Below, piece after piece: positions 319 to 47,553 of a stretch of DNA of 52,737 nt. Position 1 is the first letter of the stretch. Every line of letters starts with the position of its first letter. The notes beneath the pieces were generated by a model. That model was not told where the DNA came from. It ran no database searches and saw only the letters and a list, made by a program, of their open reading frames with translations. The translations under genes and the position numbers were made by a program. The stretch covers positions 1 through 52,737 of the forward strand of contig JADGQO010000199.1 of assembly GCA_017881725.1 (NCBI GenBank), read 5' to 3'. This stretch comes from Fibrobacteria bacterium. GTDB taxonomy: Bacteria; Fibrobacterota; Fibrobacteria; UBA11236.

Positions 319-801
319 ATGGTCAAGGTCGGCATCGGGCAAGACAGCCACCGCATTCAGGAACCTGCTGCGGGCAAAACTTTGGTATTGGGCGGGCTGG
401 CCTTGAAGGAAGACTACGCCTTGGAAGGCAACAGCGACTCGGACGTGGTTCTGCACGCGATCACCAACGCCATCTCCGGCATCACGGGCAAACCCGTGCT
501 GGGCCCCACGGCGGACAAGTTGTGCCGGGCGGGCCAAACGGATAGCGCGGCGTATTTGAAAGTCGCCATGGACGACCTGGCCTCCATCGGCTATCGGATA
601 GGTCACGTGTCGGTTACCTTGGAATGCAAACGACCCAAAATATTGCCCATCCTGCCGGCCATGGTCCAGCGGCTCAAAGAACTTTTGGGCGTGTCCGGCA
701 ATGACATCGGCATCACGGCGACCACGGGAGAGGGATTGACGGATTTCGGGAAAGGCTTGGGCATCCAGGCTTTCGCTTGCGTGACCGCCGCAAGGACATA
801 A
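319..801 (+). CDS. ispF: 2-C-methyl-D-erythritol 2,4-cyclodiphosphate synthase (divergent subfamily)
   Basis: IspF cyclises CDP-ME 2-phosphate to MEcPP in the cytoplasmic MEP pathway. The protein has 160 residues, the normal length. The metal-binding motif D-x-H is present at the N-terminus (GIGQDSHRI), as is the third ligand in SDSDVVLHA, and the C-terminal TTGEGLTDFGKGLGI corresponds to the family's 'TT.EKLGF.GRGEGI'. The usual 'H-S-D' active-site loop reads N-S-D, so the His equivalent to E. coli His34 is replaced by Asn. The middle (GKPVLGPTADKLCR) departs from the usual 'G..FPDTDP' segment. From memory, similar variants occur in Planctomycetes-like lineages. It follows ispD and is probably co-transcribed with it. 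Confidence 0.88.
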   Translation: MVKVGIGQDSHRIQEPAAGKTLVLGGLALKEDYALEGNSDSDVVLHAITNAISGITGKPVLGPTADKLCRAGQTDSAAYLKVAMDDLASIGYRIGHVSVTLECKRPKILPILPAMVQRLKELLGVSGNDIGITATTGEGLTDFGKGLGIQAFACVTAART

Positions 802-1004
802 GCGACGGCTGTCGCCGGGGGCTCCGTCTTTTCGCCGGATTTTTTTCGTGGACTTTCCGTCAACCGCTTTTCGGAACGGATTTCCCCTCAAAATCCGCCT
901 TCCCTCCGGTTCAATCGGGCTTGGAAAGATCCGACCAAAATTTTACCTCTTGGGCGCGCGTAGCCAATTGGAATGAATTTTTGTCCTAACCCGAGAGTCC
1001 AGCC

Positions 1005-4000
1005 ATGCCCAAACTTCAAAGCCGAGTACCCGTCCTTTCCAAGCCAATCCCGATTGTTTCCGCCCTTCTCGCCCTGGCGGCGGCCCTGCTCATCCAGAGC
1101 TGTCTGCTTTCCGGCACCTCGGGAAAAGATTCCCCACCCGAGTCCGGGAGCAACGGGTATTTCAAAATCACCGCGCCGACGGACGGCCAGCAAATCAGCA
1201 TGGATTCGACCTACACCATCCTATGGTCGCCCTCGGATTCGGTCGTCAACGATCCGGTGCGCATTGATTTGTATTCTGGGTCACAGTTCCTTGCAAATTT
1301 GGTCTATTCCGTCTCCAATTCCGGCCACTACTCCTGGATGCCTTCCTCCGCCATACCTTATTCGGCGTACAAATTGGGCGCGGGCATGGCCTTGCGCTTG
1401 AAAATGATGAGCGCGAAGGACACGACGAAATGGGACTTCGGCCCGGCCTTCTCCTTGACTTCCATCTATTCCGGGACCATTACCATCACGTCTCCGACGG
1501 CCCGTTCCGAAGCGATGTTGGATTCCACCTTCGCAATCCGCTGGACTTCCACCGGGAGTATCGGTACGTCCCTCGGCATCCAATTGCTCAAGGACACATC
1601 CCTCCTCGAAACCTTGCCGTCCGCGACCGCCGGTTCGGGTTATGCGCTCTGGGATCCCGTATACTCACCCAAGGGATCCGGCGATGATTACCATATCCGC
1701 GTTTACAGCCGCAACAATCCCGGAATTTCCGCCTTGAGTCCCGCCTTTTCCATCCGGTCCAGCTTTACGGGCGGATTCACCATCACCTATCCGGCCGCCG
1801 GGGATGTCATCGATTCCAAATCCGGGCAATATGCCAAGGTCAAATGGTCGGTCACGGGCAATCCGGGATCATCCGTTTCCCTTTCCGTCCTGCGCGATTC
1901 GGTTCTTGTGATGGCGTTGTCCAGCGCCACTACCTCCGCCGATTCGACCACCTGGTATCCGAATTCCTCGCTTTCCACTTCCTCCCATTACCGCATCAAA
2001 ATGGTCAGCGTTTCCGATCCCGGCATCGCGGCCTTATCCAAGGAATTCACCATCAAGGGCTCCGATCCCGATTCCTTCGAAGTGGACGACAGCATGCGGG
2101 TAGCCAAGGCCATTACCGCCGGCGCGCCACCCCAGCAGCGCACCCTGACCTACAATGACGTGGATTGGGCCAAGTTCTCCGCGAGCAAAGGGAAAAAATA
2201 TTTGGTGTCCGTGCGCATGGGAACCTCGTCTTCTTCCGCATCCGGTTCGCTCACCGCGTACATCATGGACAGCACTGGGCTCACGTCCCGGGCCTACCAA
2301 TCCGGAGCGAATGTCCAATTGATGGTCAGCGCGGCGTATACCGGCAATTATTTCGTGAAAGTGTCGAGCAGCGGAAGCTATGGCGCCTACACGCTTTCCT
2401 TGAGCGAGTACGATTCCACTGCCAGCCCCTACAATGTCCAGTTCACCGCGCCGGACGCGAAAACCACTTGGGCCGCCGGATCACTTTATACCATAGCCTA
2501 TGTTCCGGACTCGGTATTTTTCGGCGCCTATGTTTCCCTGGCCCTTTACAACGACTCCATCTTCGTCCAATCCATAGCGTCGGATCTTTCCAACTCGGGA
2601 CGATACTCCTGGACCATTCCCAGCGCGCTTTACACGGCGAGCAAATACCGCATCCGAATTTCCGACTACAATAATTCCTCCGTATATTCCTACAGCCCGA
2701 ATTTTACCATCAGCGGGATTTTGCCGGATACCTATGAGCCGGACAATACCAAATCCGACGCCAAGGTCCTGAGCGATGACGGCGTTCCCCAAAACCGGAA
2801 CGTGTCGTCCAGCGATCAGGATTGGATCCGCATCAATGCCGTGGCGGGGAAAAAATATCTGGCGATCATCGCTTCCTCCATTTACTTGCCGTCGGCGACC
2901 CTGCTGGATAGCTCGGGCTCGACGGCCATCTACCAATCCGGGTCCTCGGGCGCTTACACCTTTACGGCAAGTTATACCGGCCCGTATTACCTGAGAGTCT
3001 ATGGATCCTCCAGCACCTATGCCTATACGGCCACCTTGCTGTCCGGCGATGCGCTTGCCTCGGGGTTCCCGGTGAAATTCACCGCCCCGGATACCGCTAC
3101 GACATGGGCGGCAGGGTCGTCCTATACCGTGAATTGGAAACCCGATTCCTCCGTGTTTGGAACCTACGTTTCCCTAGTGCTGTATCTGGATTCCACCTAT
3201 ATCCAATCCTTGGTTTCCGACGTCAACAACAGCGGCACGTATCAAATCGCATTGCCCACGGGACTCTTAACCTCCAGCAATTACCGGATCCGGATCGCCA
3301 GCTACAACAGTTCGCAAATTTTCGGCTACAGCCGGAAATTCACCATCAGCGGTTTGACGCCCGATGCCTATGAACCCGACGATCGGCAGTCCTCGGCCAA
3401 GGATATACTCGTCACCGGGGTTCCGCAATCGCATACCATGACAACCAACGATTCGGATTGGGTCAAGTTCTCCGTCACGGAAGGGAAATCCTACCTGCTT
3501 TCCGTGAGCGGAAACGTTAGCGTGTACGCCTTTGTGCTGGACAGTCTGGGAACCCAGGTCATCTATAATTCCGGATCGAAATTTTCCTTGTCCTTCACGG
3601 CGTCGCGGACGGGCAAATATTATGCGCGCATCCAATACTACAGCGGGTACGGCGCATACACGGTTTCCGTGAATGAAGTGGATCCGGCCAAAGGCACGGC
3701 GCCGGCAAAATTCCTGTCGCCTAAGGATTCGACCACCTGGGCCTCCGGAAGCGCTTACACGGCGGCCTGGACTCCGGACTCCGCGGTTTACGGGAGCTAT
3801 GTTTACCTCAGCCTGTATCTGGACACGACTTTAATCCAATCGTTCAGTTCCTCGTACTCCAATAGCGGCACCGGCTCGATCAGCCTCCCGCTGGGCTTGG
3901 CCACTTCCAACCGTTACCATTTGCGCATGAGCAGCAGCAATTCCAGCGCCCTTTACGGCTATAGTCCGTATTTCACGATCGCCGGAGTCGCGCCGGATTC

Positions 4001-4723: not shown

Positions 4724-4734
4724 CGCCCCGGACG

Positions 4735-6836: not shown

Positions 6837-9035
6837 ATGGCATCCTCCGACAAAAACTCCATCCAAAGGGTAAGCGGCTCCAGCGATAGGCCCGCCTCGC
6901 AGCCCAATGCGTTTACAGGCACGGTCACGGCCGTCAAGAACGTGGAGGGCAAGCAAACCCTCGACGTGCAGTATACGCAAGGACGCATCCGACTCCAGGC
7001 GGACGGGGATTTCCAATTAGGCGAAAAAATCCGCATGTTGTTTTCCGGAAACGGCAACGTGCAGGTGGAGCGCAATCAGTCGCATGACACTCCGGACCCG
7101 ACCGGAAGCGCTCCAGCCGGAAGTAATCAGTCCGGTAGTTATACCTTACCGCAAAATCTCGCATCCTTGCGCGACTTCGAGGAAGGCGTCGTGAAATGGA
7201 TGGCGGAAAAAGGCCTGGACGTAGGCGCAGGTGGAGCGGATGCCACAGGAGCGGGCGGCGCTCCGGGAGCCGGCGGTTCCGCGGCGCAGAAAGCTGGAGC
7301 GGGCGCGGGCGGGCCACCTCTGGCGCAATTGACGCTACCACAATTATTGGTGCAAGTGATGAGCCAAGCGGGCGGTGAGGAATTCCTCTCCCAAGCGGCG
7401 CAGGGCCTGGACCGCAATCTGCTCGGCGAATTGATGGATGCATTGGATAAGACATCCGGAGATCCTTCCGTCAAGGCGGCCTTACAGGATCTACTCAAGG
7501 CCGCTGCGAATTCCGGAAGCTCCGGAATTTCCGGCGGCCCGGCAGCCGACGCGGGTCCGAAAAACCTGGACGGGCGCTGGTCGGCGGAAGCCGGGTCCGG
7601 CGCTTCCCCCTGGTTCGGGCGCATTCTGGAAAAAGATTCCGCGGACGCTTATCTCTCGCCCATGAACCGGCTGCAATTCGGCGCGGCGAAGTCTCCCTCC
7701 CCGGCGGATCCCATGTACCGGTACCTGCTCGATGTCGGCGATGGCCGCACCATGGACGCTTATTCCACCTCTTCCCGTCAGCCCGGGGAGTTCGCCGGCT
7801 TTCAACTGGAAAAACACGGCGATCGCATGCAAGCCAATTTTTCCGATGCCGCCGCATCCCTGCCGGCCCAACTGCGGGGAATCTTCAACGCGTCCGGAGC
7901 GGACATGCGCCAAGCCCTAAGCCTGTCCGCCCACTATCTCGCGGAGTTCCAGGGAGAGTCGTATTTCCCGAAATTGGTGCAGGATTTCGCCGACGTATTG
8001 GCCCAAAGCGGCCGCCTGGGTAACCCAAATGTTACGTCGGCGGCGGGAAAATCCGGTACGCTCGCGAATGCCGCGGAACTGGCGTCCACCCAAGGTCCGG
8101 CCGCGACAGCCAACTCCGCCGGTACTGCAGCGTCCGCCGAGACGGCGGGGTCCGCCGCGATGGGGCAAACGCGGCCCTCAGGCGCGGCTACGGGCGCGGG
8201 GCTTCCAGATCAAAAGGAACTCGACGGATTGCTCAAATTATTCGTCGCCTTCCCGCGCGACGCACGGCAACCGGAAAAACAGGCGCGCGCCTGGGTCGAC
8301 GCCGCGCGCAATCCCCAGGCCATGTTGGACCTGCTGAAGAACCTTCGTCCCGAAAAGGATGGTACGCTGCTGCGCGCGGGCACGCCGCTGCGCGTGGCCG
8401 ACGCCGCAACTTTGGCCGCACCCAACGGAGAATCGATCGGCGGAGGCGCGGATGCCCTGGCAAGTCTGTTAAAAAAAATACTGCCGACATCGTTCCAATC
8501 CAATGACCTCCTGAACCTGGTCGACAATGCCAAAGCGCTCTTGAGCGCCGCAGCCAAGGACGCCGATCCCGCCAAGTTCCTATTGCAAAGCCTCGCCACG
8601 GCCTTGCCCAAGGAAGATATTCCCCCGGGCCAACCGTCGCAATTCTACTACTACCAAGGCCAGGAATGGCGCGGCCTCCAAGTAACGTGGGAAAAAGGCG
8701 GCGGTGAAAACGGACGCGGAAAAAACGGACCCAAGGCTCCCTTGCAAGTGCGCGTGGAAACCCAGGCCAAGCACATGGGCCAAGTGAAAGTCGGTTTCAG
8801 TTGGGAGCCCACCGGCAAGGGCGCTAAACTCGATTTCAAAAATCAATTCCACAACGTCCGCGAGTTGTTATCGCAAAGCCTCCCGGAGCTGGAAAAAAGT
8901 TTGTCCCACATGGATTTTCGCGTCGCCTCCTGGACCTACGAAACACTCCCCGACGACGTTCCCGCCCACCCGGTGCCGGGCTGGACGCGTCCCACCGCGC
9001 TCTCCGACGGATCAAATCTCGATCTTTTCGGCTGA
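6837..9035 (+). CDS. FliK-like (flagellar hook-length control type) protein
   Basis: This is a 732-residue protein. The N-terminal 85 residues form a small beta-rich region (FTGTVTAVKNVEGKQTLDVQYTQG). A long Ala/Gly/Ser-rich middle follows. The C-terminal 130 residues have the pattern of the Flg_hook domain of FliK: strand LQVRVETQAKHMGQVKVGFSW, then KLDFKNQFHNVRELLSQSLPELEKSLSHMDF, then a final strand. FliK measures hook or needle length by being exported through the flagellar type III system. No other flagellar gene occurs in this window, apart from the preceding membrane-HTH gene that resembles a flagellar-operon member. It could also be a repurposed FliK-domain protein. A near-perfect GGTAAC-N6-GTTACG site lies in the linker-coding region at 8019-8036. 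Confidence 0.6.
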   Translation: MASSDKNSIQRVSGSSDRPASQPNAFTGTVTAVKNVEGKQTLDVQYTQGRIRLQADGDFQLGEKIRMLFSGNGNVQVERNQSHDTPDPTGSAPAGSNQSGSYTLPQNLASLRDFEEGVVKWMAEKGLDVGAGGADATGAGGAPGAGGSAAQKAGAGAGGPPLAQLTLPQLLVQVMSQAGGEEFLSQAAQGLDRNLLGELMDALDKTSGDPSVKAALQDLLKAAANSGSSGISGGPAADAGPKNLDGRWSAEAGSGASPWFGRILEKDSADAYLSPMNRLQFGAAKSPSPADPMYRYLLDVGDGRTMDAYSTSSRQPGEFAGFQLEKHGDRMQANFSDAAASLPAQLRGIFNASGADMRQALSLSAHYLAEFQGESYFPKLVQDFADVLAQSGRLGNPNVTSAAGKSGTLANAAELASTQGPAATANSAGTAASAETAGSAAMGQTRPSGAATGAGLPDQKELDGLLKLFVAFPRDARQPEKQARAWVDAARNPQAMLDLLKNLRPEKDGTLLRAGTPLRVADAATLAAPNGESIGGGADALASLLKKILPTSFQSNDLLNLVDNAKALLSAAAKDADPAKFLLQSLATALPKEDIPPGQPSQFYYYQGQEWRGLQVTWEKGGGENGRGKNGPKAPLQVRVETQAKHMGQVKVGFSWEPTGKGAKLDFKNQFHNVRELLSQSLPELEKSLSHMDFRVASWTYETLPDDVPAHPVPGWTRPTALSDGSNLDLFG
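8019..8036. repeat. GGTAAC-N6-GTTACC-type palindrome (11 of 12 match)
   Basis: The half-sites GGTAAC and GTTACG are separated by exactly six bases, inside the low-complexity part of the FliK-like gene. This is one of about a dozen such sites in the window; see findings. Confidence 0.5.
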
Positions 9036-18918: not shown

Positions 18919-20191
18919 GTACAATCTTCAAAGCAATCAGAAAAAAATTTCTCCGGTGACGACCGTAACTACGGGCACAATTACGGCCGCGACGGCGACG
19001 TCAACGGAGTCTGCTCTGCGGATCGGCCGAACTGCGGGCGCGCGGGGCCTGCGCATAGGCATGGCATTGGGGCTGGCGGGCTTAACAGCGATCCTGAATG
19101 TGTCCTTGGCGGCCGCGCCGGTTCCCCAAGGTAACACCACGGTTACCCAAGGTTCGAATCCCTCCAACCCATCGGACATGCGGCGCACGGCCATCGTCGT
19201 GGCCACGGAGAAGGCCGCCCCTTCCGTGGTAAGCATCACGGTGCATCATTCGGCGGTGGTGGCCTATGGCAACCCGTTTTTCCAGGATCCGTTCTTCGAT
19301 TTTTTCGGCCCCCAGTACCGCAAAAAGGAAATGAGCAGCCTGGGATCGGGCGTGATCGTCGCGAAGGACGGTTTTATCCTGACCAACGCCCATGTGGTGG
19401 GATCGGGCGAGAGCGGGGAACTGGAAGGCATCACGGTGACGCTTTCGGACGGGCGGCAATTCGCCGCCAAGCTGGTGGGCGTGGAATATGCCAATGACCT
19501 GGCGGTCCTCAAAATCAAGGCCGATACCCTGCCTGTCGCGCAAATGCAGGAGCGGCCGGACAACATGATCGGCGAGTGGGTCGTGGCCATCGGCAACCCT
19601 TATGGCTATCTCATCAGCGATACCAAACCGACCGTTACGGTCGGCGTCATCAGCGCCGTGAACCGATCCTTCAGCAGCAACAGCGGCATCCATTACCACA
19701 ACATGATCCAGACCGACGCGTCCATCAATCCGGGCAACAGCGGCGGCGCGTTGGTAAACGTGGATGGCAAGGTCATCGGCATCAACACCTTCATCTTCAC
19801 GGGCGGCGGCCAATCGCAGGGCAGCATCGGACTGGGCTTCGCGATCCCCATTCAGAAGGCCAAGTCCGTCATGGACGAATTGATCCGATTCGGGTATATT
19901 CGGGAATTCACCACCGGCATTTACACCGATCCGAATGGCGAGGATGGCCGACCCGGCGTGACCATCGTGGGCCTGGACCGCGCCTCTCCGGGCGAAAAAG
20001 CCGGGCTCAAGGTGGGCGACGTGATTTACGAAGTGGCGGGAAAACGCATCGACTCCTTTCAGGACATCCAGGACATCTTCAAGTTGCTCCAGGTGGGCGA
20101 GTCGGTGGACATCCTATACTTGCGGGGCAACGCGAAGTTGCGGACGCAAATGGTGCTGGAAGAGAAAAACAAAAAGCACCGGATCTATTAA
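18899..20191 (+). CDS. HtrA/DegP-type serine protease with one PDZ domain
   Basis: This is an envelope quality-control protease. Of its 430 residues, the first 54 are a Thr-rich cytoplasmic extension and 55-73 are hydrophobic (MALGLAGLTAILNVSLAAA), serving as a signal or anchor. The protease domain carries the triad His165 (TNAHVV), Asp200 (YANDLAVLK) and Ser281 (NPGNSGGAL). A single PDZ domain spans about 325-420 (DRASPGEKAGLKVGDVI). One PDZ makes it DegS-like in layout. The start may be as late as 19061, which would remove the odd N-terminal extension. The gene overlaps truA by 20 bases. A perfect GGTAAC-N6-GTTACC palindrome lies in the linker at 19130-19147. Confidence 0.87.
   Translation: MQTDMGKYNLQSNQKKISPVTTVTTGTITAATATSTESALRIGRTAGARGLRIGMALGLAGLTAILNVSLAAAPVPQGNTTVTQGSNPSNPSDMRRTAIVVATEKAAPSVVSITVHHSAVVAYGNPFFQDPFFDFFGPQYRKKEMSSLGSGVIVAKDGFILTNAHVVGSGESGELEGITVTLSDGRQFAAKLVGVEYANDLAVLKIKADTLPVAQMQERPDNMIGEWVVAIGNPYGYLISDTKPTVTVGVISAVNRSFSSNSGIHYHNMIQTDASINPGNSGGALVNVDGKVIGINTFIFTGGGQSQGSIGLGFAIPIQKAKSVMDELIRFGYIREFTTGIYTDPNGEDGRPGVTIVGLDRASPGEKAGLKVGDVIYEVAGKRIDSFQDIQDIFKLLQVGESVDILYLRGNAKLRTQMVLEEKNKKHRIY
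19130..19147. repeat. Perfect GGTAAC-N6-GTTACC palindrome inside the HtrA linker
   Basis: Both half-sites are exact and the spacer is six bases. It encodes QGNTTVTQ between the membrane segment and the protease domain, a part of the protein with little sequence constraint. Confidence 0.6.
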
Positions 20192-22623: not shown

Positions 22624-22705
22624 CTAATTCCCTTGTCAATCCCGCATTTCCAATTCATACCCTTTTTGAATGGTGTTATGGTGAATTGTGTTATGAAATC
22701 CGCGA

Positions 22706-23168: not shown

Positions 23169-23175
23169 CAGTGGT

Positions 23176-27650: not shown

Positions 27651-29291
27651 GTGAAAATGTCGGCAATCGGCGTCAGCGGGTGGTTCTTGATCGCGCTTCT
27701 CGGCGGGGCGCTCGGGCGTGCCAACGCCATGCCTCCCGTACTGCCGGTCATTCCTCCACGTAACTTTGACGTTACCGTATATGGCGCCGTGGCCGATGGC
27801 GTCACCGACAATGCGGTCTCGATCCAGACCGCTATCAAAGCTGCCGTCGATGCCGGAGGCGGAACGGTTCGGCTTCCCGCGGCTTCCAAATCCTATCTAT
27901 GTGGCCCCATCACCCTATCCAGTTTCATTCGCCTACAAGTGGATCAAGGCGCCACCTTGGCCATTCTCGGCTATGCTCAATATCCCCTGGTCGGAACGGG
28001 ATATGCGACCTGGCTTACCAGCAAAGGGGCCACGAACCTTGAGATTTCCGGGCGCGGAACTATCGATGGCCAGGGGCAAGCGTGGTGGGACGCCTTTAAC
28101 GCCGATAATAACATGCCGCATCGCCCTTATATGATCAATCTGCAAGACGGACAGCGCGTCCGGGTTCATCAGATCACTTTGAAAAACTCGCCCAGCTTTC
28201 ATCTGGCCCTGACCAACGACAATGACGTGATGATCGACAGCATCACCATCTTGGCCCCCGGAAATTCTCCCAACACCGACGGCATGGATCCTTCCGGCCA
28301 GAATTACTTGATCCGCGACGACAGTGTATCGGTCGGTGATGATAACATCGCCATCAAACCCGGGGCGGCCTATTGCAAGAATTTTTTCATTTCCAATTGC
28401 CGCTTCGGGACAGGCCACGGGGTTTCCGTGGGTGGACAGAGCCGCGACGGACTCGACAGTTTGTCCGTAACCGATTGCCGGTTCACGGGCGGGGATAACG
28501 GCATTCGCCTCAAGGCCAACCGCACCAACGGCGGCGCTTGCCGTCACATGCAGTTCACGAACTTAACCATGAACAACGTACGCTATCCGATTTACTTCAC
28601 CAGTTATTACGGCAACTCCAGCCCCGATATCGCCGATCCCGACTCCGTCATCACGCCGCTGACGCCGATCTGGAGGGACGTGGTGGTCGCCAATGTGGTT
28701 TCCAAGTCGACCGCGAGCAATGCCACAGCGGGGTTTTTCTGGGGTTTGCCGGAAATGCCGTTGGACTCCATCACCCTGGCGAACGTCGACATCACGGCTC
28801 CCAAACCGATGGTCGTTAATCACGCCGCGCATTTCCGAATCTTGAATTCGAGCCTGTCCCCGACGTCCATTTCCGCAAGCGATGCGACGCCGCAAGTGAG
28901 TTCTCCGGCTTTCGAAATCATCGCCGCCCCCTGGCCGGTAGTCGATTCCACCGGTCACGATGCCCGGTTCGAAGTCGTCGCCACGGGAACTTCCACGATC
29001 GGCTATCAGTGGTATGCCGATAGTAAAGCGCTTAACGATGGCGGGAATGTTTCCGGTGCCAAGTCGTCGGTTCTCGTCCTGAAAAATTTGACGCGGGGCG
29101 ATGCCGGAGCCTATACCGTAAAAATGAGCAACACCTCCGGGTCCGCAACGGCCGGGCCTGCAAGCCTTACGGTTTTGGAACCATCAACGACCTTAGTCGG
29201 TTCTTTACGGAAGATCAGAAAATCTCCTTCAGCCCGGAGTACCAATTTATTGGGCCGTCGAACTCACCGCCACCTCAAAATCCCCCAATAA
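27651..29291 (+). CDS. Exported GH28 polygalacturonase-like enzyme with an Ig-like domain
   Basis: This 546-residue protein has a signal peptide (cleavage near GRANA). The right-handed beta-helix domain starts FDVTVYGAVADGVTDNAVSIQTAI and carries the GH28 catalytic residues: NTDGMD, GDDNIAIK, GHGVSVGGQ and the substrate-binding IRLKANR. A C-terminal Ig-like domain (GYQWYADSKAL, DAGAYTVKMSN) follows. After it, the last 40 residues (GSLRKIRKSP, RRTHRHLKIPQ) are basic and unlike a sorting domain; a frameshift that removed the original end is possible. It should cleave pectic or related polysaccharides outside the cell. The start is GTG 27651 or ATG 27657. Confidence 0.85.
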   Translation: MKMSAIGVSGWFLIALLGGALGRANAMPPVLPVIPPRNFDVTVYGAVADGVTDNAVSIQTAIKAAVDAGGGTVRLPAASKSYLCGPITLSSFIRLQVDQGATLAILGYAQYPLVGTGYATWLTSKGATNLEISGRGTIDGQGQAWWDAFNADNNMPHRPYMINLQDGQRVRVHQITLKNSPSFHLALTNDNDVMIDSITILAPGNSPNTDGMDPSGQNYLIRDDSVSVGDDNIAIKPGAAYCKNFFISNCRFGTGHGVSVGGQSRDGLDSLSVTDCRFTGGDNGIRLKANRTNGGACRHMQFTNLTMNNVRYPIYFTSYYGNSSPDIADPDSVITPLTPIWRDVVVANVVSKSTASNATAGFFWGLPEMPLDSITLANVDITAPKPMVVNHAAHFRILNSSLSPTSISASDATPQVSSPAFEIIAAPWPVVDSTGHDARFEVVATGTSTIGYQWYADSKALNDGGNVSGAKSSVLVLKNLTRGDAGAYTVKMSNTSGSATAGPASLTVLEPSTTLVGSLRKIRKSPSARSTNLLGRRTHRHLKIPQ

Positions 29292-32542: not shown

Positions 32543-35247
32543 GTTTTTCCCTCCGTCGGTCCAGCTATCGAGGTTCGGTTTCGGATATCATGCGTCCGGG
32601 AGCGGCCCAGCCCTTTCTGCAGCCGTGGTACGTTCCTATCTCCTGTAACGCGCGGGATACGGGCATGCCCATGGGCGGCATCGGGAACGCATTTACCCTG
32701 ACGCCGGCGGGAACCACGCCGGTGCTCTCCTGGTTGGACGGCATCCATGTGACGGGTCCGGTCGACGCGCCTATTCGATTGCAGAATATTTTCTTCGCCG
32801 AGCGCCGGGTGGATGCGCCCCTCGAAGTGATCGATGCGGGAGCCATTCTGCGTTTCAACGATTACCAGCCCCTCTTGCGTCAGGATGGACGCCGTTGGCT
32901 GTCGGGAAGGGAAATGCCCGCAGAGGTAAAAAGCACCGTTACGCAGATGGCGGCGGAGCCCGGATTGTACCGCGATAACTCGGCGGCCCTGCGACGCTGG
33001 CAAGTTACCCTGTCGCCGCGCACCTTGGCACTGTCGAAAAAGAGACACACGGCGGAGCTTTCCCGCGCGTTGTTGCTGGATATTTTCGGCGGATCATTGT
33101 CCTTGCAAGCCAAGTTTTCCGGCGCCTTGACCGGTGATGTCGAGGAACAGAAAATCGACGGCCAAAAGGCCTACTCCGCGGATTCGATGGCGTATGTGGG
33201 CTTATACCCGTTGGCGGAAACCGTTTATCGGAATCCGGGGCACGATCTGATTCTCACCCGGAGGAATTTCTCGCCGGTGATTTGCGGCGATGAACGCGCT
33301 TGTTCCCTTCCTGTGTCGATTACGGAGATCGAATTCGAAAATCCCACGGCGCAACCGCTCGAAGCCACGGTCGTATGGACCTTGGAAAATCTGTGCGGCG
33401 ATCTTGTGGTGAAGGAAAGGCCCGGCGTCCAGGACGCTTGGTTCCGCGTGGTGCGCACGGCGCGTTACCAGATCGGGGAGGCTATCCACGATCGCCTACC
33501 GCAGGACGGGCGGACGATTTTAGGCTTCGCGCATACTTTGGAAAATCCCGATGTGGACTCCGATTTTTCCGGCGGCATGGCCTTGGCGATGGAATGCGAA
33601 AGCCCCGACAGCGATTTCTATGCTACGGCGCATCCGACTTTTTACGTCGCTGATGCGGAACGGATTACGCGGGAGGCCTTGGACACGGGCCGCATCGCGC
33701 CTCCGCCGGCGGAGATGCTCGCGACGGGGCGTGAGCGCCGCATGGGAGCGTTATGCGCCACGGTGGTCGTGCCTGCGGGCGGCCGCCGGAAGGTGCGCTT
33801 CGCCTTGGCATTGGATTTCCCGAACATCAAGATGCGGGGCTTCTCGTCCCGGAAGAAATACACGGAATTTTTCCCTCAGGACCCGGGCCGCGCGGCTTTG
33901 TTGGCGCTGGAAACCCTGCGCCGAGGCGATGATTACCTAGCGCGGATTCTCAAGGACCATGCGGGTATGGACGAAACGGGTCCCCTGGCCGATTTCCTGA
34001 AAACTGCACCGTCCGCCGAAGCCGCAAATCGGTTCCAGACCCTGCTGGCCAACTCCCTGGGCTTCTTGGCCGACGCCACGGTGTGGGATAATCAGGAACA
34101 TTTCTGGGTGCGCGAGTGCGCCGATTATCCCTTCTTCAATTCGCTCGACGTCTATTTCTACGGCTCTTTTTCCGTGCTGCGCCTTCTGCCCCGCATGGAC
34201 GGCAGCGTGCTTAGGGAATTCGCCCGGGCCGTGCTGCAAGAAGATCCTACCGTCCGCCGCCATTGGATATACTCCCATCAACCCTTCGCGGACTTGCCCG
34301 ATCCCCGGCATCAAGGCCCGCGCGGGGTAACCGGTGCGGTACCCCATGACATGGGCAGTCCTTTCGATCCCAAGCCGGACGCTTACATATGGCACAATGT
34401 GAAGCATTGGAAGGATTTGGCGCCGAAGTTCTTATTGCTGGTATGGCGTCATTACAAGTTGACGGGCGACAAGGCTTTCCTTTCCGATTGCCGGGAAGCG
34501 GCTTTCGCGGCCTTAAAATACCTATCCGATATGCGCGAGCCGGGGGAGACCATCCCGCTGACGCACGGCACGGATGACACATTCGACAACTTGGCCTCGC
34601 ACGGCATCTCCATCTATTGCGGATCGCTGTGGGTCGCGGCTTTGTCGGCCGGGGCCGCCATCGCCGAAGCGCTGGGTGAAAAGGATAAAGCCGAGGACTG
34701 GCAAGCCCTGGGCGCATTGGCTCAGCGCGATCTGACCCAAACCTTGTGGGACGAAAAAACCGGCGGTTACCTGTTCTATAAGATTCCCGGTTCCGGCGCG
34801 GTCAGCGACGACGTGTTCGCGGATCAATTGCTATCGGACCTGTGGCTGGAGCTGCTTGGTCTGCCGGAGATCACTCCCAAGAATAAAAGGCTCCGTGTCG
34901 CGCGCCGCATCTTGGATAACAATTTCCACATCAACAGTCCCGGCGTGGGTGCGGCGAACCTATGCGCTGCGGATGGTAAAGCGCTGGACTCGTTCCAGGC
35001 CCAGGACGTTTGGGTCGGCGTGCAATTCAGCCTCGCGGCTGCAGCCGCGCGCGCAGGCGAAATCGCAGGCGCATGGGAACTCATCGAAGCCCAATACGAA
35101 AACCTATACAACCAAGCCAAGATTCCCTTCGGTGCTCCGGAGGGCTTCAATGCCAGCGTGCCCGGCAGCGAAGTCTTGCAGTACACTGCGGGGCGTTATT
35201 TGCGTCCCGGCATGGCCTGGGTGTTCGCGTGGGGAGTATCCGCTTAA
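32539..35247 (+). CDS. GH116-family glycosidase (beta-glucosidase / glucosylceramidase-like)
   Basis: This 902-residue protein has no signal peptide. The N-terminal half is a beta domain starting PMGGIGNAFTLTPAG, typical of GH116 ('GGIG.G...R...G'). The C-terminal (alpha/alpha)6 barrel holds the likely nucleophile in WVRECADYPFFNSLDVYFYGSF, aligned with 'LEG.EY...NTYDVHFY', and the acid/base region in THGTDDTFDN followed by YCGSLWVAAL. Known GH116 members cleave beta-glucosides, beta-xylosides or glucosylceramide. Coupling to a GH94 phosphorylase suggests both act on intracellular beta-glucan fragments. The ATG at 32539 overlaps the previous stop by 4 bases. Confidence 0.82.
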   Translation: MSFSLRRSSYRGSVSDIMRPGAAQPFLQPWYVPISCNARDTGMPMGGIGNAFTLTPAGTTPVLSWLDGIHVTGPVDAPIRLQNIFFAERRVDAPLEVIDAGAILRFNDYQPLLRQDGRRWLSGREMPAEVKSTVTQMAAEPGLYRDNSAALRRWQVTLSPRTLALSKKRHTAELSRALLLDIFGGSLSLQAKFSGALTGDVEEQKIDGQKAYSADSMAYVGLYPLAETVYRNPGHDLILTRRNFSPVICGDERACSLPVSITEIEFENPTAQPLEATVVWTLENLCGDLVVKERPGVQDAWFRVVRTARYQIGEAIHDRLPQDGRTILGFAHTLENPDVDSDFSGGMALAMECESPDSDFYATAHPTFYVADAERITREALDTGRIAPPPAEMLATGRERRMGALCATVVVPAGGRRKVRFALALDFPNIKMRGFSSRKKYTEFFPQDPGRAALLALETLRRGDDYLARILKDHAGMDETGPLADFLKTAPSAEAANRFQTLLANSLGFLADATVWDNQEHFWVRECADYPFFNSLDVYFYGSFSVLRLLPRMDGSVLREFARAVLQEDPTVRRHWIYSHQPFADLPDPRHQGPRGVTGAVPHDMGSPFDPKPDAYIWHNVKHWKDLAPKFLLLVWRHYKLTGDKAFLSDCREAAFAALKYLSDMREPGETIPLTHGTDDTFDNLASHGISIYCGSLWVAALSAGAAIAEALGEKDKAEDWQALGALAQRDLTQTLWDEKTGGYLFYKIPGSGAVSDDVFADQLLSDLWLELLGLPEITPKNKRLRVARRILDNNFHINSPGVGAANLCAADGKALDSFQAQDVWVGVQFSLAAAAARAGEIAGAWELIEAQYENLYNQAKIPFGAPEGFNASVPGSEVLQYTAGRYLRPGMAWVFAWGVSA

Positions 35248-35456
35248 ATAAACCCATTTGAAATTCGTACAATCATCCTATACTTTATCGGCCGGGTGCG
35301 TTTTCCAATCGTCGGATCCCAACCCCTATTCCGGCTTATCCTGCGCTGACAAGATTTCCAAAATGGGGAACGAGTTGGTTGCCTTTGAAGCCTCCAAACC
35401 CTCCAAACCCAAAACGTTGTCGAAGGCTTCCGCTGCGGATTCGACCCCATCGGTGA

Positions 35457-36069: not shown

Positions 36070-38304
36070 TCAAAACGCGTAACCGCCGATTTCTTCCCGC
36101 AGGGCCTCGGCCAAAAGGGTATTGCGCGCCACGGCGGGATTGTTCTCCACGGCTTTTTGGATCGCGTCGGGTTGACCGGCCAGGAAAAGGCGTTCGCGCG
36201 CGCGCGTGATGCCCGTGTAAAGCAGGTTTCGCTGCAACATCACCCAATGGGCCCGTCCCATAATCATCACCACGGCTTTGAACTCGCTGCCTTGGCTTTT
36301 GTGGATGGTCACGGCGTAGGCCAAGGATAACTGTTCGAGATCCTCGTATGCGTAGGTCACCACTTCGCCGTCGAAGTCCACCGTCAGGCTGCGCGCGGTT
36401 TTGGAGACGGAGGAGACGAATCCGATGTCGCCATTGAAAACATTCTTGTCGTAATTGTTGCGGAGTTGCATGACCTTGTCCCTAGTCCGGATGACTCTTT
36501 CGCGGACGTCAAGGCCTTCGGAATTCGGATTGAGCTTGGCCTGCAAGGCGGCGTTCAAGGCCAAGGTGCCGAGCGGTCCCTGGTTCATGGGGGTCAGCAC
36601 CTGGATGTCCAGGAGCGGGCTGTAGCCGAAGCGCGCGGGCAAGGTTTCCGCCACCAAGGTCGCGATGCGCGCGGGAGCGTCAAGGCCGTCGCCGAGGTTC
36701 AGGAAATGGAAGTTGCCGTTGCTGTTTTCCCGCGCATCGACTTCACTGTGACCCGGGGATTCGCCATCCGCCCTGGGTCGCACGGCCGGTACCGTAACCG
36801 GGGCGATACCCTGGTGGATGCGATGGGCATTGGCCACGATCAGGGATTCCTCCGCCTGGCGGAAGATGCGATCCAGATGGAGATGCGGGATGGCGCCGGA
36901 GCGGATGAATTCGGCCAGCACCTTGCCCGGCCCCACGGAAGGCAATTGATCCGGGTCGCCGATGAGGATCAGCCGCGTGCCGGGCTTCACGCCTTTCAAC
37001 AGCGAGTACATCAACACGGTGTCGATCATGGACAATTCATCCACCACCAGCACGTCCGTCGGAAGGGGAGCCAAATCGTCATAGGTGAACTTATGCTGCA
37101 CGGCGTCGAATTTCAAAAGCCGATGGATGGTGGCGGCTCCGTGGCCGGTGACTTCCGACAAGCGCTTCGCGGCCCGACCGGTGGGCGCGGCCAACTTCAC
37201 CTTCAGTCCCGCGCGCTTGAAAACCTCCAGAATCCCCAGCACCGTGGTGGTCTTGCCCGTGCCCGGACCGCCCGTCAAAAGGAAAATACCTCGGCCCACG
37301 GCGTCGCGAATGCCGGCTTTCTGCTGATCGCTGTAGGTAAAGGCGCGGCCGTCCTTGCCTTTTCCGAAAGCCGCTTCCGCCGCCTGGATGGATTCGTTGA
37401 CCAAGCCCTTGGGAATGGCCTTGGGCGAGAAACACAATTGCGCCGCCCGCCGCGCGATGCCGCGCTCGCTGTGGAACAGGTAGGGCGGAAAATATCGGCC
37501 TTGCCCGTCATGGCGAACCTGATCCGTCACGGCAAGCCCGTCCAAGGTGAACACGATTTTTTCCGGCGCGCATTGCAACAAGGCCAGCGCTTTTTCGAGC
37601 AGGTCTTCACGGGGAAGAAAGACATGCCCCGCTTCTGTTGCCTTGGTTAATGCATGCGCCAGGCCCGCCTTGATGCGTTCGTAGGAGTCGTCGCCGAAGC
37701 CCAGCTTGCGCGCTATCGCGTCGGCCCGGAGGAAACCGATGCCCCAGATATCCTCGGCCAGTTGGTATGGATTGGCTTTTAATACGTTCGCTGCGTCCGC
37801 GCCGTAATGCTTGGAAATCCGGGCGCTCAGTCCGGCGCTCAGATTATGCGCCTGCAGGAAATAAAGGATTTCGCGCGTGCTCTGGTTGTCGTGCCAGGCC
37901 AACATCAACTTCGCGCGGGCCTTACCCGTCAGTCGCGGAATTTCCGAAAGTCTTTCCGGATGCTTGTCCAGGACTTCGAAGGTTTCCAATCCGAAGTGCT
38001 TGACCAGCTTGGACGCCATCGCCGGCCCGACGCCTTTCAAGGTGCCGCCGCCCAGGTACCGCTCCATGGCCTCGAGGTTGTCAGGGGCTAAAAGCTTGTA
38101 GCCTTTAGCTTTGAATTGTTCGCCGAAGGTTTCGTGCTTCGTCCATTCACCCTCGACCTCCAACATTTCCCCGGGGCTGAGTTTGGGGAAAACGCCGATG
38201 GCTGTGAAGGCGCGATCGGTTAAGGCCTCGGTCAATTTGAGGACCGAATATCCGTTGTCCGGATTGTGGAAGGTGATGGTTTTGACGATGGCTTTATGAA
38301 TCAT
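36070..38304 (-). CDS. recD2: RecD2-type ATP-dependent 5'-3' DNA helicase
   Basis: This 744-residue helicase acts in DNA repair outside the RecBCD complex. The N-terminal region has an OB-like part and tandem helix-hairpin-helix motifs (LKGVGPAMASKLVKHFG and DIWGIGFLRADAIARKLG), which distinguish RecD2 from RecD. The motor carries Walker A GGPGTGKTT, APTGRAAKRL, Walker B VVDELSMID, GDPDQLPSVGPG and the C-terminal VTIHKSQGSEF. A charged insert of about 30 residues (RPRADGESPG, DARENSNGN) sits between motifs III and IV. The ATG at 38304 is preferred: the 17 residues before it would be encoded within a terminator hairpin. Confidence 0.92.
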   Translation of the reverse strand: MIHKAIVKTITFHNPDNGYSVLKLTEALTDRAFTAIGVFPKLSPGEMLEVEGEWTKHETFGEQFKAKGYKLLAPDNLEAMERYLGGGTLKGVGPAMASKLVKHFGLETFEVLDKHPERLSEIPRLTGKARAKLMLAWHDNQSTREILYFLQAHNLSAGLSARISKHYGADAANVLKANPYQLAEDIWGIGFLRADAIARKLGFGDDSYERIKAGLAHALTKATEAGHVFLPREDLLEKALALLQCAPEKIVFTLDGLAVTDQVRHDGQGRYFPPYLFHSERGIARRAAQLCFSPKAIPKGLVNESIQAAEAAFGKGKDGRAFTYSDQQKAGIRDAVGRGIFLLTGGPGTGKTTTVLGILEVFKRAGLKVKLAAPTGRAAKRLSEVTGHGAATIHRLLKFDAVQHKFTYDDLAPLPTDVLVVDELSMIDTVLMYSLLKGVKPGTRLILIGDPDQLPSVGPGKVLAEFIRSGAIPHLHLDRIFRQAEESLIVANAHRIHQGIAPVTVPAVRPRADGESPGHSEVDARENSNGNFHFLNLGDGLDAPARIATLVAETLPARFGYSPLLDIQVLTPMNQGPLGTLALNAALQAKLNPNSEGLDVRERVIRTRDKVMQLRNNYDKNVFNGDIGFVSSVSKTARSLTVDFDGEVVTYAYEDLEQLSLAYAVTIHKSQGSEFKAVVMIMGRAHWVMLQRNLLYTGITRARERLFLAGQPDAIQKAVENNPAVARNTLLAEALREEIGGYAF

Positions 38305-38721: not shown

Positions 38722-40284
38722 TTATTCGAAACGTTGCAGCAAGGCCTGGAAAAGCCCCTGCGCAAAATCCCCCAGCCCCGGGTCGCGCGCCCCCATGGTA
38801 ACGACCCAATCGCCCGGCTTGGCTATTCGCGAAATGGCTTCAATCACGGCGTCCTTGGTGGGGAAAAAGTGTCCCTGCGGCCCGCCCAACGCATTCAGAT
38901 CATCGATCAAATCCGCCGAGGAAATCGATTTATCCGCCGTGCCTCCCGCATAATAAATCTCGGGCATGAAAAGATGATCTTCCGGACCCAGGGCGGCGGC
39001 GATGGCGGCCGTTAGTTCACGGCGCATCAGTTTCATGGGCGCGAATCCATGGGGATGGAAAACCGCCAACACGCGCCGGGGTTTCCCGTCGGAGGCGTGT
39101 TTAACCGTTTCCAGGCAGGCTTGGACCTTGGCGGGATTATGCGCAAAATCATCCACGACGGTGACGCCCACCGTATCTTGTAGGTTACCCTGCGCGTCGG
39201 CAACGTTAGCAAGTCCCTGGCCGTCCGCAGCGCCCGTCCGGGTCGACACGGAACCGCCCGCGACGCCGACGAGAACATGCCGCCGCTCGACGCCGCGATA
39301 GGCAGCGATGCCCTCGGCGCAACGCTCCAGGGGGATTTCCAGGGCCCGACCCACGGCGATGGCGGCTATGGCATTGGCCAAATTGTGCCGGCCGGGAACG
39401 GGAACGCAAAAAGCCACGCCCGCGAGGACGAAGTTTGTTTCCCAATCGCCCAGGCGGATGTTTTCGGCCCGGACTTCGGCGACGGCCCTGGCGCCGGACT
39501 TGGACCCTCCCTCGGCGCCACCCTTGGAGATTCCATCGGGCCTTAACCCGACCTCGTCGGGCTTGAACCCGATTCCATCGGGCCAGAACCAGGAATCCTG
39601 GTCACGATGCAATTCCCGGCAATGGGAATCGGCGTGGTTCAGGATGACGCTGCCTTGGGTTTGATCGCGGAACTGCCGGAACAGAGGAATCAACTCAGCG
39701 ATTTCCTTATGATCTTTTTCGATGTTCAGGATCAAGGCGATTTGCGGGGCGTACTTGATTAGGCTGCCGTCGCTTTCATCCGCCTCGATGGCGAGCCACT
39801 CCCCGGTACCGCCTACGGCATTGCCCAACAGGCCTTGGGACTGCAAGGAGTTTAGGTTTGCGCCGGTGATGAGGGACGGTTGCAAGCCTCCGGCGGCCAG
39901 GACATGATAAATCATGCCCGTCACCGTGGATTTTCCTGAGGTGCCCGAAACGGCGATGGTCCGCTTGCGCCGAGCCAGCTCAGCCAACACGTCGGAGCGG
40001 TGCAGGATGGGAAGTCCCAGTCTCCGCGCGGTCTGGATTTCCGGGTTTTGGGCTTCGATGGCCGTGGAGACGACCAGGCAAGAGCATCCCTCCGGTCCCG
40101 TGCCGTCCTGGGGTTTCAGCGCCACGCCAATGCTTTGGAAATATTCGCGCTTTTTAGCTTCCGCGCCGCGGTCGAGGCTACGGTCGGATCCGGAAACGGG
40201 AATGCCTTGGAAAGCCAGGTATTGGGCCAGGGCGCTCATGCCCGTGCCTGCGATGCCGGAGAAGAAAGGCCGGGTAAGGTCCAT
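38722..40284 (-). CDS. MurC/Mpl-type Mur ligase
   Basis: This 520-residue ATP-dependent ligase belongs to the UDP-N-acetylmuramate family. The N-terminal nucleotide-binding part starts FFSGIAGTGMSALAQYLA and includes SGSDRSLDRG. The ATP loop is SGTSGKSTVTGMI, and IEADESDGS, LNIEKDHKE and VVDDFAHNPAKVQACL follow. These fit MurC (adds L-Ala) or Mpl (recycles the tripeptide). It stands outside any division-cell-wall cluster, which favours Mpl or a paralogue, but I cannot decide. Two low-complexity inserts are present: a 7-residue repeat (PDGIGFK, PDEVGLR, PDGISKG) and a Gly/Asp/Ala stretch (ADGQGLANVADAQGN). The ATG at 40284 gives the family's usual N-terminus. Confidence 0.82.
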   Translation of the reverse strand: MDLTRPFFSGIAGTGMSALAQYLAFQGIPVSGSDRSLDRGAEAKKREYFQSIGVALKPQDGTGPEGCSCLVVSTAIEAQNPEIQTARRLGLPILHRSDVLAELARRKRTIAVSGTSGKSTVTGMIYHVLAAGGLQPSLITGANLNSLQSQGLLGNAVGGTGEWLAIEADESDGSLIKYAPQIALILNIEKDHKEIAELIPLFRQFRDQTQGSVILNHADSHCRELHRDQDSWFWPDGIGFKPDEVGLRPDGISKGGAEGGSKSGARAVAEVRAENIRLGDWETNFVLAGVAFCVPVPGRHNLANAIAAIAVGRALEIPLERCAEGIAAYRGVERRHVLVGVAGGSVSTRTGAADGQGLANVADAQGNLQDTVGVTVVDDFAHNPAKVQACLETVKHASDGKPRRVLAVFHPHGFAPMKLMRRELTAAIAAALGPEDHLFMPEIYYAGGTADKSISSADLIDDLNALGGPQGHFFPTKDAVIEAISRIAKPGDWVVTMGARDPGLGDFAQGLFQALLQRFE

Positions 40285-40290: not shown

Positions 40291-40308
40291 GGTAACGCTC
40301 AGGTTACT
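40291..40308. repeat. GGTAAC-N6-GTTACC-type palindrome between two genes (11 of 12)
   Basis: GGTAAC and GTTACT are separated by six bases. The site lies immediately before the Mur ligase start and overlaps the last bases of the HEAT-repeat gene. Confidence 0.6.
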
Positions 40309-42316: not shown

Positions 42317-42352
42317 TCAATTTGCACTTTTCAATCTCTTCTTTGAGGTCCT

Positions 42353-42850: not shown

Positions 42851-42855
42851 CGGAC

Positions 42856-46555: not shown

Positions 46556-46585
46556 TTTTTCGCGCTGCCGTCGATGTAAATCCAT

Positions 46586-46634
46586 GGTAACCTAGCTGTA
46601 ACCTTGGTTTCGCCTAGGTAACCTATATGTTACC
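46586..46634. repeat. Two GGTAAC-N6-GTTACC palindromes in tandem
   Basis: The first (46586-46603, GGTAAC-N6-GTAACC) has one mismatch and the second (46617-46634) is perfect with one extra paired base on each side. They lie between two converging genes and can form hairpins. Confidence 0.8.
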
Positions 46635-47553
46635 TCACTCCCACCGTCACCCCGACGAAAATCGCCGCCATCCCCGAAACCATCACCCATTTCAATCGCC
46701 TTTGGACGCGCCCCCAATCCGTGGCCGGAGGGGTCAGCCCACGCAGCACGGCGATCAAGGCCGGCAAAGGTCCGAGCAAGATGAGCAGGAAGTATCCGGG
46801 ATGATAATCGAGTAGCAAATAGGGTAGCGGCAACAATACCAGCACGCAGGCCGAGAGAATCCCCACTGCGGCTTTGGCGGCGCGGTCTCCGAAACGGATC
46901 GGAAATGTGCTCCAGCCGACAGCCCGGTCTCCCGGCACATCCTCGGCATCCTTGGAAACCTCGCGCGCGGCCGTAGTCAGGAAGGCGAACAAGGCTGGCA
47001 AGCCCGTATGCAGTGGCGCATGGGGGAACTCCGGAAAATAGACGGCCAAGGCGCAGAGCAGGGCAACGGCCAGGTTACCCCAGAGCGGGAGCGCTTTGAG
47101 TTTGAGATTGTACAGTACCAGTAACAATGCCATACCGGCCGTCAAGGCCATGGGGGCGAAGTCGCCGGTAGTTAATCGTGGACCAGTCAACTCTCCGGTG
47201 GCCGACAAGGCTGGATGCAGGCCGGGGAAGGCACCGCCCGCCAGCGAAATGCCGAGCCAACCCGACAATAGAATCGAAACAACATACAGGAACGCCGACA
47301 TCCTCAGGGCTTGGCCCCGCGTGATCCGTCCAGCGGGAATCGGGCGAGCGGGCTGATTGATGCGATCGGCTTCCGCGTCCAAGGCGTCGTTTTGCATGTT
47401 GCCGGCCGAAGCCAAAAGACCCAAAGCCAATGCGCCCAGGGCCGCGGCCCCGTAGTCCATGGGCCCGGGCAAGCAGGCATGGCCCAAAATGACTCCCACG
47501 CCGGCCACGGCCGAGTTGGAAAACCGGGCCAGTTTCAACCAATCGCGCAGCAT
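46630..47553 (-). CDS. UbiA-family prenyltransferase
   Basis: This 307-residue integral membrane enzyme has about nine hydrophobic helices. The first Asp-rich motif reads NMQNDALDAEADRINQPARPIP and the second REVSKDAEDVPGDRAVG; both bind the Mg-diphosphate of the prenyl donor. The short RINQPARPIPAGRI stretch recalls the geranylgeranylglycerol-phosphate transferase / chlorophyll-synthase-like branch more than MenA or UbiA proper. The acceptor is unknown. The gene stands alone. A GGCAAC-N6-GTTACC site lies inside the gene at 47062-47079. Confidence 0.82.
   Translation of the reverse strand: MLRDWLKLARFSNSAVAGVGVILGHACLPGPMDYGAAALGALALGLLASAGNMQNDALDAEADRINQPARPIPAGRITRGQALRMSAFLYVVSILLSGWLGISLAGGAFPGLHPALSATGELTGPRLTTGDFAPMALTAGMALLLVLYNLKLKALPLWGNLAVALLCALAVYFPEFPHAPLHTGLPALFAFLTTAAREVSKDAEDVPGDRAVGWSTFPIRFGDRAAKAAVGILSACVLVLLPLPYLLLDYHPGYFLLILLGPLPALIAVLRGLTPPATDWGRVQRRLKWVMVSGMAAIFVGVTVGVR

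What the first reader, a model, noticed from the sequence alone, without database searches (positions are those of the whole stretch)
601..47079. A bipartite palindrome GGTAAC-N6-GTTACC recurs with fixed spacing throughout the window
Reading by eye I find the 12 defined bases with exactly six bases between the half-sites at: 601-618 (GGTCAC left half), 8019-8036, 19130-19147 (perfect), 22526-22543 (perfect), 22559-22576, 22606-22623, 27759-27776 (CGTAAC left half), 34326-34343 (GGTACC right half), 40291-40308, 46586-46603, 46617-46634 (perfect) and 47062-47079 (GGCAAC left half). The rest have one mismatch. For equal base frequencies a 53-kb sequence should hold about 0.003 perfect sites and about 0.12 with at most one mismatch. 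Sites lie in intergenic gaps and also inside genes, often in linker-coding parts. This could be a binding site for a nucleoid, segregation or global regulatory protein (as matS or cyanobacterial HIP1 are for other systems), or a tiny mobile hairpin. The spacer sequence is not conserved, which favours a bound dimer over an RNA hairpin.
Basis: partly seen in the sequence, partly recalled or inferred. Interest (0 to 1): 0.82.

Follow-up and report, generated by a model that had tools for sequence, protein, structure and literature searches.

The report
Genome-wide palindromic protein-binding site, lineage-specific
One small lineage of uncultured Fibrobacterota-like bacteria carries hundreds of copies of a split palindrome (GGTAAC, six free bases, GTTACC), scattered even inside genes and favoured strongly enough to alter protein sequences, most likely as the landing site of a still unknown paired DNA-binding protein.

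Summary
The genome has 131 perfect sites (reversed-motif control 2) and 677 with up to 1 mismatch (control 15). Only the 6-base spacer is enriched. Of 167 genomes placed in the phylum, clear enrichment is confined to the window's genus (6 of 6) and one of four sister-genus genomes. Half-sites vary independently, which fits a two-fold symmetric protein and not a hairpin. About 83% of sampled sites lie in genes, with no clear chromosomal domain and turnover between species. They reshape proteins: GNxxVT peptides are five-fold commoner at exactly that gap. Lone half-sites are not enriched.

Best reading: dispersed sites of an unidentified, lineage-specific dimeric chromosomal protein acting through site density. 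Main rival: a self-DNA signal spread by molecular drive, as uptake sequences are. The protein was not found: there is one ParB_N protein per genome, ComEC is present everywhere tested, and partial searches of HTH_8, HTH_50 and tyrosine recombinases gave no fitting candidate.

The parts
601..618 (.). site, 1 mismatch, in the YgbB-family gene 319-801
8019..8036 (.). site, 1 mismatch, in ORF 6837-9035 (GNPNVT)
19130..19147 (.). perfect site, in the trypsin/PDZ protease gene 18899-20191 (GNTTVT)
22526..22543 (.). perfect site, convergent gap behind gatA; first of a three-site cluster
22559..22576 (.). site, 1 mismatch; second of the cluster, local near-duplicate of the first with its flanks
22606..22623 (.). 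site, 1 mismatch; third of the cluster
25633..25650 (.). weak site, 2 mismatches
26360..26377 (.). weak site, 2 mismatches
27759..27776 (.). site, 1 mismatch, in ORF 27657-29291
34326..34343 (.). site, 1 mismatch, in ORF 32665-35247
35366..35383 (.). weak site, 2 mismatches
36793..36810 (.). weak site, 2 mismatches
39172..39189 (.). weak site, 2 mismatches
40291..40308 (.). site, 1 mismatch, at a gene junction; its half-site supplies the TAA stop of the minus-strand ORF 40304-41260
46586..46603 (.). site, 1 mismatch, convergent gap
46617..46634 (.). perfect site, convergent gap; its half-site supplies the TAA stop of the UbiA-like gene 46630-47553
47062..47079 (.). site, 1 mismatch, in the UbiA-like gene
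50370..50387 (.). weak site, 2 mismatches

Best explanation
Shown: GGTAAC-N6-GTTACC (extended: cc.r GGTAAC n B nn V n GTTACC y.gg) is a dispersed, clade-specific signal with rigid spacing and two equivalent halves that vary independently, favoured strongly enough to create amino-acid motifs and to use stop codons. Inferred: it is the binding site of a lineage-specific, sequence-specific dimeric chromosomal protein that works through the number and spread of its sites along the chromosome (nucleoid anchoring, bridging or marking), not through any one promoter. The genome has 677 sites with at most 1 mismatch in 5.2 Mb, perhaps 1,300-1,600 with weaker ones (my extrapolation from the sample). Neighbouring dimers may sit side by side at 17 bp. 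The protein itself is not identified. The probability that this is a protein-dimer site of whatever role is about 0.85; the confidence given is for the chromosomal-architecture role.
For: Spacer exclusivity. Whole-genome excess 677 against 15 and 131 against 2. In the G000 sample 137 of 268 GGTAAC hexamers lie in sites with up to 2 mismatches, and outside them GGTAAC is at 0.54 of a Markov expectation that the sites themselves inflate, so only the paired unit is favoured. Half-sites vary independently. 17-bp-offset neighbours: 5 seen, about 0.12 expected. GNxxVT peptides: 41 at gap 2, mean 8.1 at the other eight gaps, with the exact codons on both sides in 21 against 0.18 expected; VTxxLP 21 against 11.75, exact codons 13 against 0.07. 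Sites lie in genes, use the gene's own TAA stop in 9 cases (447 of 1,450 called genes end in TAA), and are not enriched upstream of genes (0.106 per kb, coding 0.107, within 60 nt behind stops 0.614). Density is compatible with evenness across contigs (chi-square p 0.52, 0.62, 0.34) and the gap CV is 1.007. Genus 6 of 6, sister genus 1 of 4.
Against: No binding protein was found. Selection on each of many equivalent structural sites strong enough to change amino acids is hard to picture; molecular drive explains that more easily. Known site-specific chromosome proteins have far fewer and domain-biased sites (matS 23, Noc about 70, SlmA 24-52; PMC3116907 and PMC4726725, passages), and no clear bias is seen here. 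Counts differ three-fold within the genus (225 to 677), and in the G004 sample the motif does not stand out in an unbiased scan. The 17-bp offset was noticed before it was tested.
Confidence: 0.45

Rival explanations
1. A self-DNA signal that spreads by molecular drive: a competence receptor or recombination factor prefers DNA carrying the motif, so copies accumulate by biased uptake and recombination, as for uptake sequences of Pasteurellaceae and Neisseriaceae.
For: Similar hallmarks: in-place substitution and turnover, proteome reshaping, random-like spread, enrichment behind genes, clade dependence with slightly different flank preferences in G000 and G003. ComEC is present in 12 of 12 genomes tested. 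Literature: USS arise by point mutation and drive alone can suffice (PMC7811141, section 8); DUS lie in genes and often behind them as inverted pairs (PMC3630211, passages).
Against: The uptake sequence printed in the passages I saw (DUS GCCGTCTGAA) is not a palindrome, and I know of no symmetric bipartite one (recalled). ComEC does not separate enriched from non-enriched genomes. Genes of atypical composition are not clearly poorer in sites (0.092 per kb in the lowest quintile, 0.083 in the highest, 0.099-0.127 between).
Confidence: 0.28
2. A HIP1-like motif created or kept by a DNA methyltransferase and linked repair.
For: Dispersed, palindromic, lineage-specific; HIP motifs track methyltransferases (PMC4390886, abstract and section 17).
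Against: Twelve defined bases plus weak flanks, split by N6, are longer than the methyltransferase targets named in the parts of that paper I saw (GATC, CGATCG, GGCGCC, GCsGC, rCCGGy). Methyltransferases were not searched for and no methylation data are available.
Confidence: 0.1
3. Operators of a conventional global transcription factor.
For: The symmetric motif has the size of an ordinary operator.
Against: 163 of 197 sampled sites lie in coding DNA and upstream regions are not enriched; sites are mostly not conserved in position between orthologs (9 of 36 comparisons keep up to 2 mismatches).
Confidence: 0.06
4. A mobile hairpin, terminator or other RNA/ssDNA structure.
For: The arms could form a 6-bp stem; sites are enriched within 150 nt behind genes.
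Against: No excess of compensatory changes (6 of 138 against 18.1 expected) and no extra pairing in spacer or flanks; counterparts in orthologs differ by substitutions (where comparisons with gaps inside the site were left out); only weak conservation beyond the arms.
Confidence: 0.02

Closest known systems
matS/MatP, Noc binding sites, SlmA binding sites
   Same: Palindromic sites of a sequence-specific protein spread over the chromosome; SlmA sites lie mainly in coding regions (PMC3116907, passages).
   Different: 23, about 70 and 24-52 sites with strong ori/ter bias; here 677 with up to 1 mismatch and no clear bias. One ParB_N protein per genome; MatP and TetR (SlmA) families were not searched.
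HIP1 and alternate HIPs of cyanobacteria
   Same: Palindromic, highly iterated, lineage-specific gain and loss (PMC4390886, abstract, passages, section 17).
   Different: HIPs named there are short contiguous palindromes tied to methyltransferases; here two 6-base halves are split by a free N6.
Uptake sequences (USS, DUS)
   Same: Point-mutation origin, abundance, presence in genes and behind genes, dialects (PMC7811141 section 8 and passages, PMC3630211 passages).
   Different: DUS as printed there is not a palindrome (USS recalled likewise); this motif is two-fold symmetric and bipartite.
TyrR box TGTAAA-N6-TTTACA (recalled; a search for that string with TyrR found no paper)
   Same: Shares the core GTAA-N8-TTAC with identical spacing.
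   Different: HTH_50 hits are below cut-off in the genus (6 of 6 genomes) and absent from enriched G009; HTH_8 gave no matching ortholog group in the partial comparison made.

Membership tests
matS/Noc/SlmA-type chromosome marker | symmetric site of a dimeric protein | tested here: inconclusive
   the site is symmetric with rigid N6 spacing and independent half-sites; the dimer is inferred, not shown
matS/Noc/SlmA-type chromosome marker | distribution biased between origin and terminus | tested here: inconclusive
   compatible with evenness across 14, 6 and 5 sampled contigs; dnaA/parB contigs 34 sites against 43.3 expected; no complete chromosome
matS/Noc/SlmA-type chromosome marker | cognate MatP, Noc or SlmA protein | tested here: inconclusive
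   one ParB_N hit per genome in 11 genomes, so no Noc-like paralog by that profile; MatP and TetR families not searched
HIP | short contiguous palindrome | tested here: not met
   bipartite with a free N6
HIP | cognate DNA methyltransferase | not tested
   no methyltransferase search and no modification data
uptake sequence (USS/DUS) | over-represented motif arising by substitution with turnover | tested here: met
uptake sequence (USS/DUS) | asymmetric motif read by a pilin-type receptor | tested here: not met
   the motif is symmetric; a receptor was not sought
uptake sequence (USS/DUS) | preferential uptake of motif-bearing DNA | not testable with these tools
   needs a transformation assay
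TyrR/HTH_8 operator | cognate HTH_8 or HTH_50 protein in enriched genomes only | tested here: inconclusive
   HTH_50 below cut-off in the genus and absent from G009; of 5 G009 HTH_8 proteins, compared with 25 of the 64 other matches, four have relatives in G006-G008 and one (L292) was read in a doubtful frame
Xer/tyrosine recombinase core site (11-6-11) | extra recombinase in enriched genomes only | tested here: inconclusive
   a third ortholog group in G000, G002, G003 but not seen in enriched G009; some frames were picked wrongly; 17-bp packing argues against 28-bp sites

The most novel reading that the evidence does not exclude
A previously undescribed kind of genome-wide self-DNA signal: a two-fold symmetric bipartite motif read by a dimeric protein, spread by molecular drive through a whole lineage so strongly that it writes its own peptide motifs (GNxxVT, VTxxLP) into the proteome.
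Probability: 0.25. Interest if true: 0.85.

Novelty: new variant of a known kind. Interest (0 to 1): 0.72.

Why it matters
To my knowledge few dispersed chromosome-wide DNA signals are known outside a handful of well-studied lineages (recalled). This one has a sharp clade boundary, with its gain or loss falling inside one family (present in one sister-genus species, absent from three), clean controls and a measurable effect on proteins. That makes the open question of whether such motifs spread by function (chromosome organisation) or by drive (uptake, recombination, repair) directly testable by comparing close relatives with and without it.

Tried and rejected
Rejected: RNA or DNA hairpin; mobile element; other spacers; a GGTGT-N6-ACACC dialect in G006, suggestive but not spacer-specific; Noc-like ParB_N paralog. 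Led nowhere: HTH_50 and HTH_8 proteins, tyrosine recombinases (my ORF picker chose wrong or truncated frames for some loci, e.g. a 90-aa frame for L248), ComEC presence (12 of 12), gene typicality, genes behind upstream sites as a clue to autoregulation. One search is an earlier, smaller version and is superseded.

Literature: searches of a 5.39-million-paper library for GGTAAC with palindrome and nucleoid (0 papers), GGTAAC with GTTACC and motif (450 papers, 15 listed; two of these concern bacterial regulator boxes, CepR and DtxR, and were not opened; none is on this motif by title), over-represented palindromic motifs with nucleoid terms (236 papers, 12 listed, none on such a motif by title) and Fibrobacterota with palindromic (5 papers, none on it by title) showed no report of this motif; that is not proof of absence. 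Convergent-gap enrichment (0.85 per kb against 0.10 coding) rests mostly on G000, 10 of 14 sites in a few gaps, and is not leaned on.

Limits: gene calls come from my own simple hexamer caller; stretches from G000 were first chosen on contigs holding perfect sites, so the sample density (15.5 per 100 kb) exceeds the genome's 13.0; the genome is a draft in 235 contigs. Motif frequencies come from sites preselected at up to 1 mismatch. Rows dropped: ortholog comparisons with gaps inside the 18 bases (not in the 36; the 36 also count one site against several genomes) and sites too near stretch ends for flank windows.
Full report
What was checked. The twelve reported sites exist as described, and a thirteenth (50506-50523) was missed. 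The window holds 3 perfect sites and 13 with up to 1 mismatch; uniform expectation is 0.003 and 0.116. With up to 2 mismatches there are 19, against 0.85 on average and never more than 3 in 100 dinucleotide shuffles. The window is contig C121 of a 5.22-Mb draft genome in 235 contigs.

Genome-wide. The genome has 131 perfect sites against 2 for the reversed motif, and 677 against 15 with up to 1 mismatch. In 445 kb of it the N6 spacer gives 23 perfect and 69 with up to 1 mismatch; spacers 0-5 and 7-24 give 0-1 and 0-3. In 400 kb of relative G003 the numbers are 6 and 46 against 0-1 and 0-3. A scan of every 5-base half-site with spacers 0-16 puts GTAAC-N6-GTTAC first in G000, G003, G002 and G005; in the 134-kb sample of G004, a low-density genome, it is not among the 12 best. 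In the G000 sample 137 of 268 GGTAAC hexamers lie inside sites with up to 2 mismatches, and lone ones are not enriched.

Clade. Across 167 genomes placed in the window's phylum, clear enrichment is seen only in the window's genus (6 of 6; 225-677 sites with up to 1 mismatch, controls 8-18) and in G009 of the sister genus (42 against 1). The other three of that genus have 3-5 against 6-25, and the remaining 157 have 0-32 with controls of 0-65; the strongest of these are mild (G103 32 against 10, G070 19 against 8, G093 11 against 2).

Anatomy. From 208 sites with up to 1 mismatch in seven genomes the motif is cc.r GGTAAC n B nn V n GTTACC y.gg. Within this preselected set the innermost C/G of the arms is nearly invariant (0.99), the fifth (0.83) and first (0.88) positions vary most, and A is rare at the second spacer position (0.06). 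Among 138 double-mismatch sites with one change per arm, 6 are symmetric against 18.1 expected from independence, and Watson-Crick pairing in spacer and flanks equals shuffled values. This argues against a selected hairpin and fits a protein with two equivalent halves. Sites offset by exactly 17 bp occur 5 times where about 0.12 are expected, which suggests that two dimers can sit side by side; the offset was noticed before it was tested.

Placement. In four genomes (G000, G002, G003, G005) 163 of 197 sampled sites lie in coding DNA (0.107 per kb). Within 60 nt behind a stop the density is 0.614 per kb, at 60-150 nt 0.366, upstream within 150 nt 0.106, in noncoding DNA far from genes 0.021. 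Nine sites use the gene's own TAA stop; 447 of 1,450 called genes end in TAA, so part of the 3' excess is mutational accessibility. Density per contig is compatible with evenness in three genomes. Contigs with dnaA or parB are not empty, though together they hold 34 sites where the whole-genome means give 43.3, and two contigs are rich (the window, 13 against 6.8; G003 C22, 29 against 17.8). Gaps between sites with up to 2 mismatches have a coefficient of variation of 1.007 (317 gaps), as for random placement. This argues against a conventional regulator and shows no clear macrodomain, but no complete chromosome was at hand.

Evolution. Pieces of the syntenic region in five genus members align mostly at 67-85% nucleotide identity. 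In 36 ungapped ortholog comparisons, which are not all independent, sites are replaced by substitutions: 27 counterparts have 3 or more mismatches, 9 have up to 2. In some the spacer is identical while the arms differ; in one pair the arms are identical while the spacer differs at 4 of 6 positions. Overall, where the counterpart is not a site, arms differ at 0.34 of positions, spacer 0.24, flanks 0.29, which is not a strong contrast. The DNA site shapes proteins: GN-xx-VT occurs 41 times in 510,501 residues of four genus members while the eight other gaps average 8.1, with the exact codons GGT AAC ... GTT ACC in 21 against 0.18 expected. VT-xx-LP occurs 21 times against 11.75, with the exact codons 13 times against 0.07. 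The small sister-genus control (72,671 residues) shows 1 and 3 occurrences and no exact codons.

Mechanism. The steps shown are the symmetric rigid unit, independent halves, clade restriction, lack of position dependence in the sample and pressure on proteins. I commit to a chromosomal protein acting through dispersed sites (0.45), with a self-DNA signal spread by drive as the strongest rival (0.28). The pressure on amino acids favours drive; the two-fold symmetry and side-by-side pairs favour an intracellular protein. There is one ParB_N protein in each of 11 genomes. HTH_50 hits are below cut-off in the six genus members and absent from G009. HTH_8 proteins gave no group fitting presence in G000, G003 and G009 with absence from G006-G008, but only 30 of 69 matches were compared and one frame was doubtful. 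A third tyrosine recombinase group exists in G000, G002 and G003 but was not seen in G009, which is 87% complete. ComEC is in 12 of 12 genomes.

Comparison with the known. matS (23 sites), Noc (about 70) and SlmA (24-52) sites are fewer and biased along the chromosome (PMC3116907 and PMC4726725, passages). HIP1 is a short contiguous palindrome tied to methyltransferases (PMC4390886, abstract, passages and section 17). Uptake sequences share the evolutionary hallmarks (PMC7811141 section 8 and passages, PMC3630211 passages), but DUS as printed there is not a palindrome. The TyrR box TGTAAA-N6-TTTACA (recalled) shares the core GTAA-N8-TTAC. So it works like a dispersed chromosome signal, and is not shown to be a member of any named family.

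A phage with the same arms. A viral-collection scan with the extended motif found two contigs of one phage holding 9 and 11 sites with up to 2 mismatches in 10.5 and 11.6 kb, 14 in a 20.9-kb stretch at N6 (other spacers 0-3), and a symmetric spacer of its own, yTyrrr. It carries a GroEL-like gene and a porphyrin-biosynthesis-type (CobS-like) ATPase. Its host is unknown: composition is closest, among the few genomes compared, to G011 and not to the window's genus, and no protein matched the sampled genomes at E 1e-4. It is not used as evidence for the mechanism.

Noticed in passing
L564, L565, L329, L330, L513 (IMG/VR contigs 3300031963_000285 and 3300032116_001637): A phage with about one GGTAAC-yTyrrr-GTTACC site per 1.5 kb in and between genes; host unknown; carries GroEL-like and CobS-like genes and a 156-aa protein weakly matching a phage transcription-regulator family. 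L497, from another contig, has similar spacers.
   Followed up: partly
G000:C215 and C183; also G001-G004 and G009: Each of these six genomes has two DnaA-like proteins over the TIGR00362 cut-off; G005 has only partial matches.
   Followed up: no
window 22526-23180: The densest site cluster lies just behind a gene for a 119-aa HTH_3 protein (22706-23065, minus strand), whose region matches G002 at 85% outside the syntenic contig; a mobile toxin-antitoxin-like module is a guess.
   Followed up: partly
G000:C114, G002:C53, G003:C82: A third XerC/XerD-like recombinase group in the genus, besides the two found in each of G006-G008.
   Followed up: partly
whole genomes G166, G114, G008 and genus g11: The reversed control (CCATTG-N6-CAATGG) is itself commoner than the motif in some relatives: 62 against 11, 65 against 23, 25 against 4, and 3-26 against 0-8 across g11.
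   Followed up: no
window 10484-13159 and 44451-46555: A protein with CheB-, CheR- and kinase-like parts, and two PorV/PorQ-like outer-membrane genes of the type IX secretion kind; scores are below the curated cut-offs.
   Followed up: no
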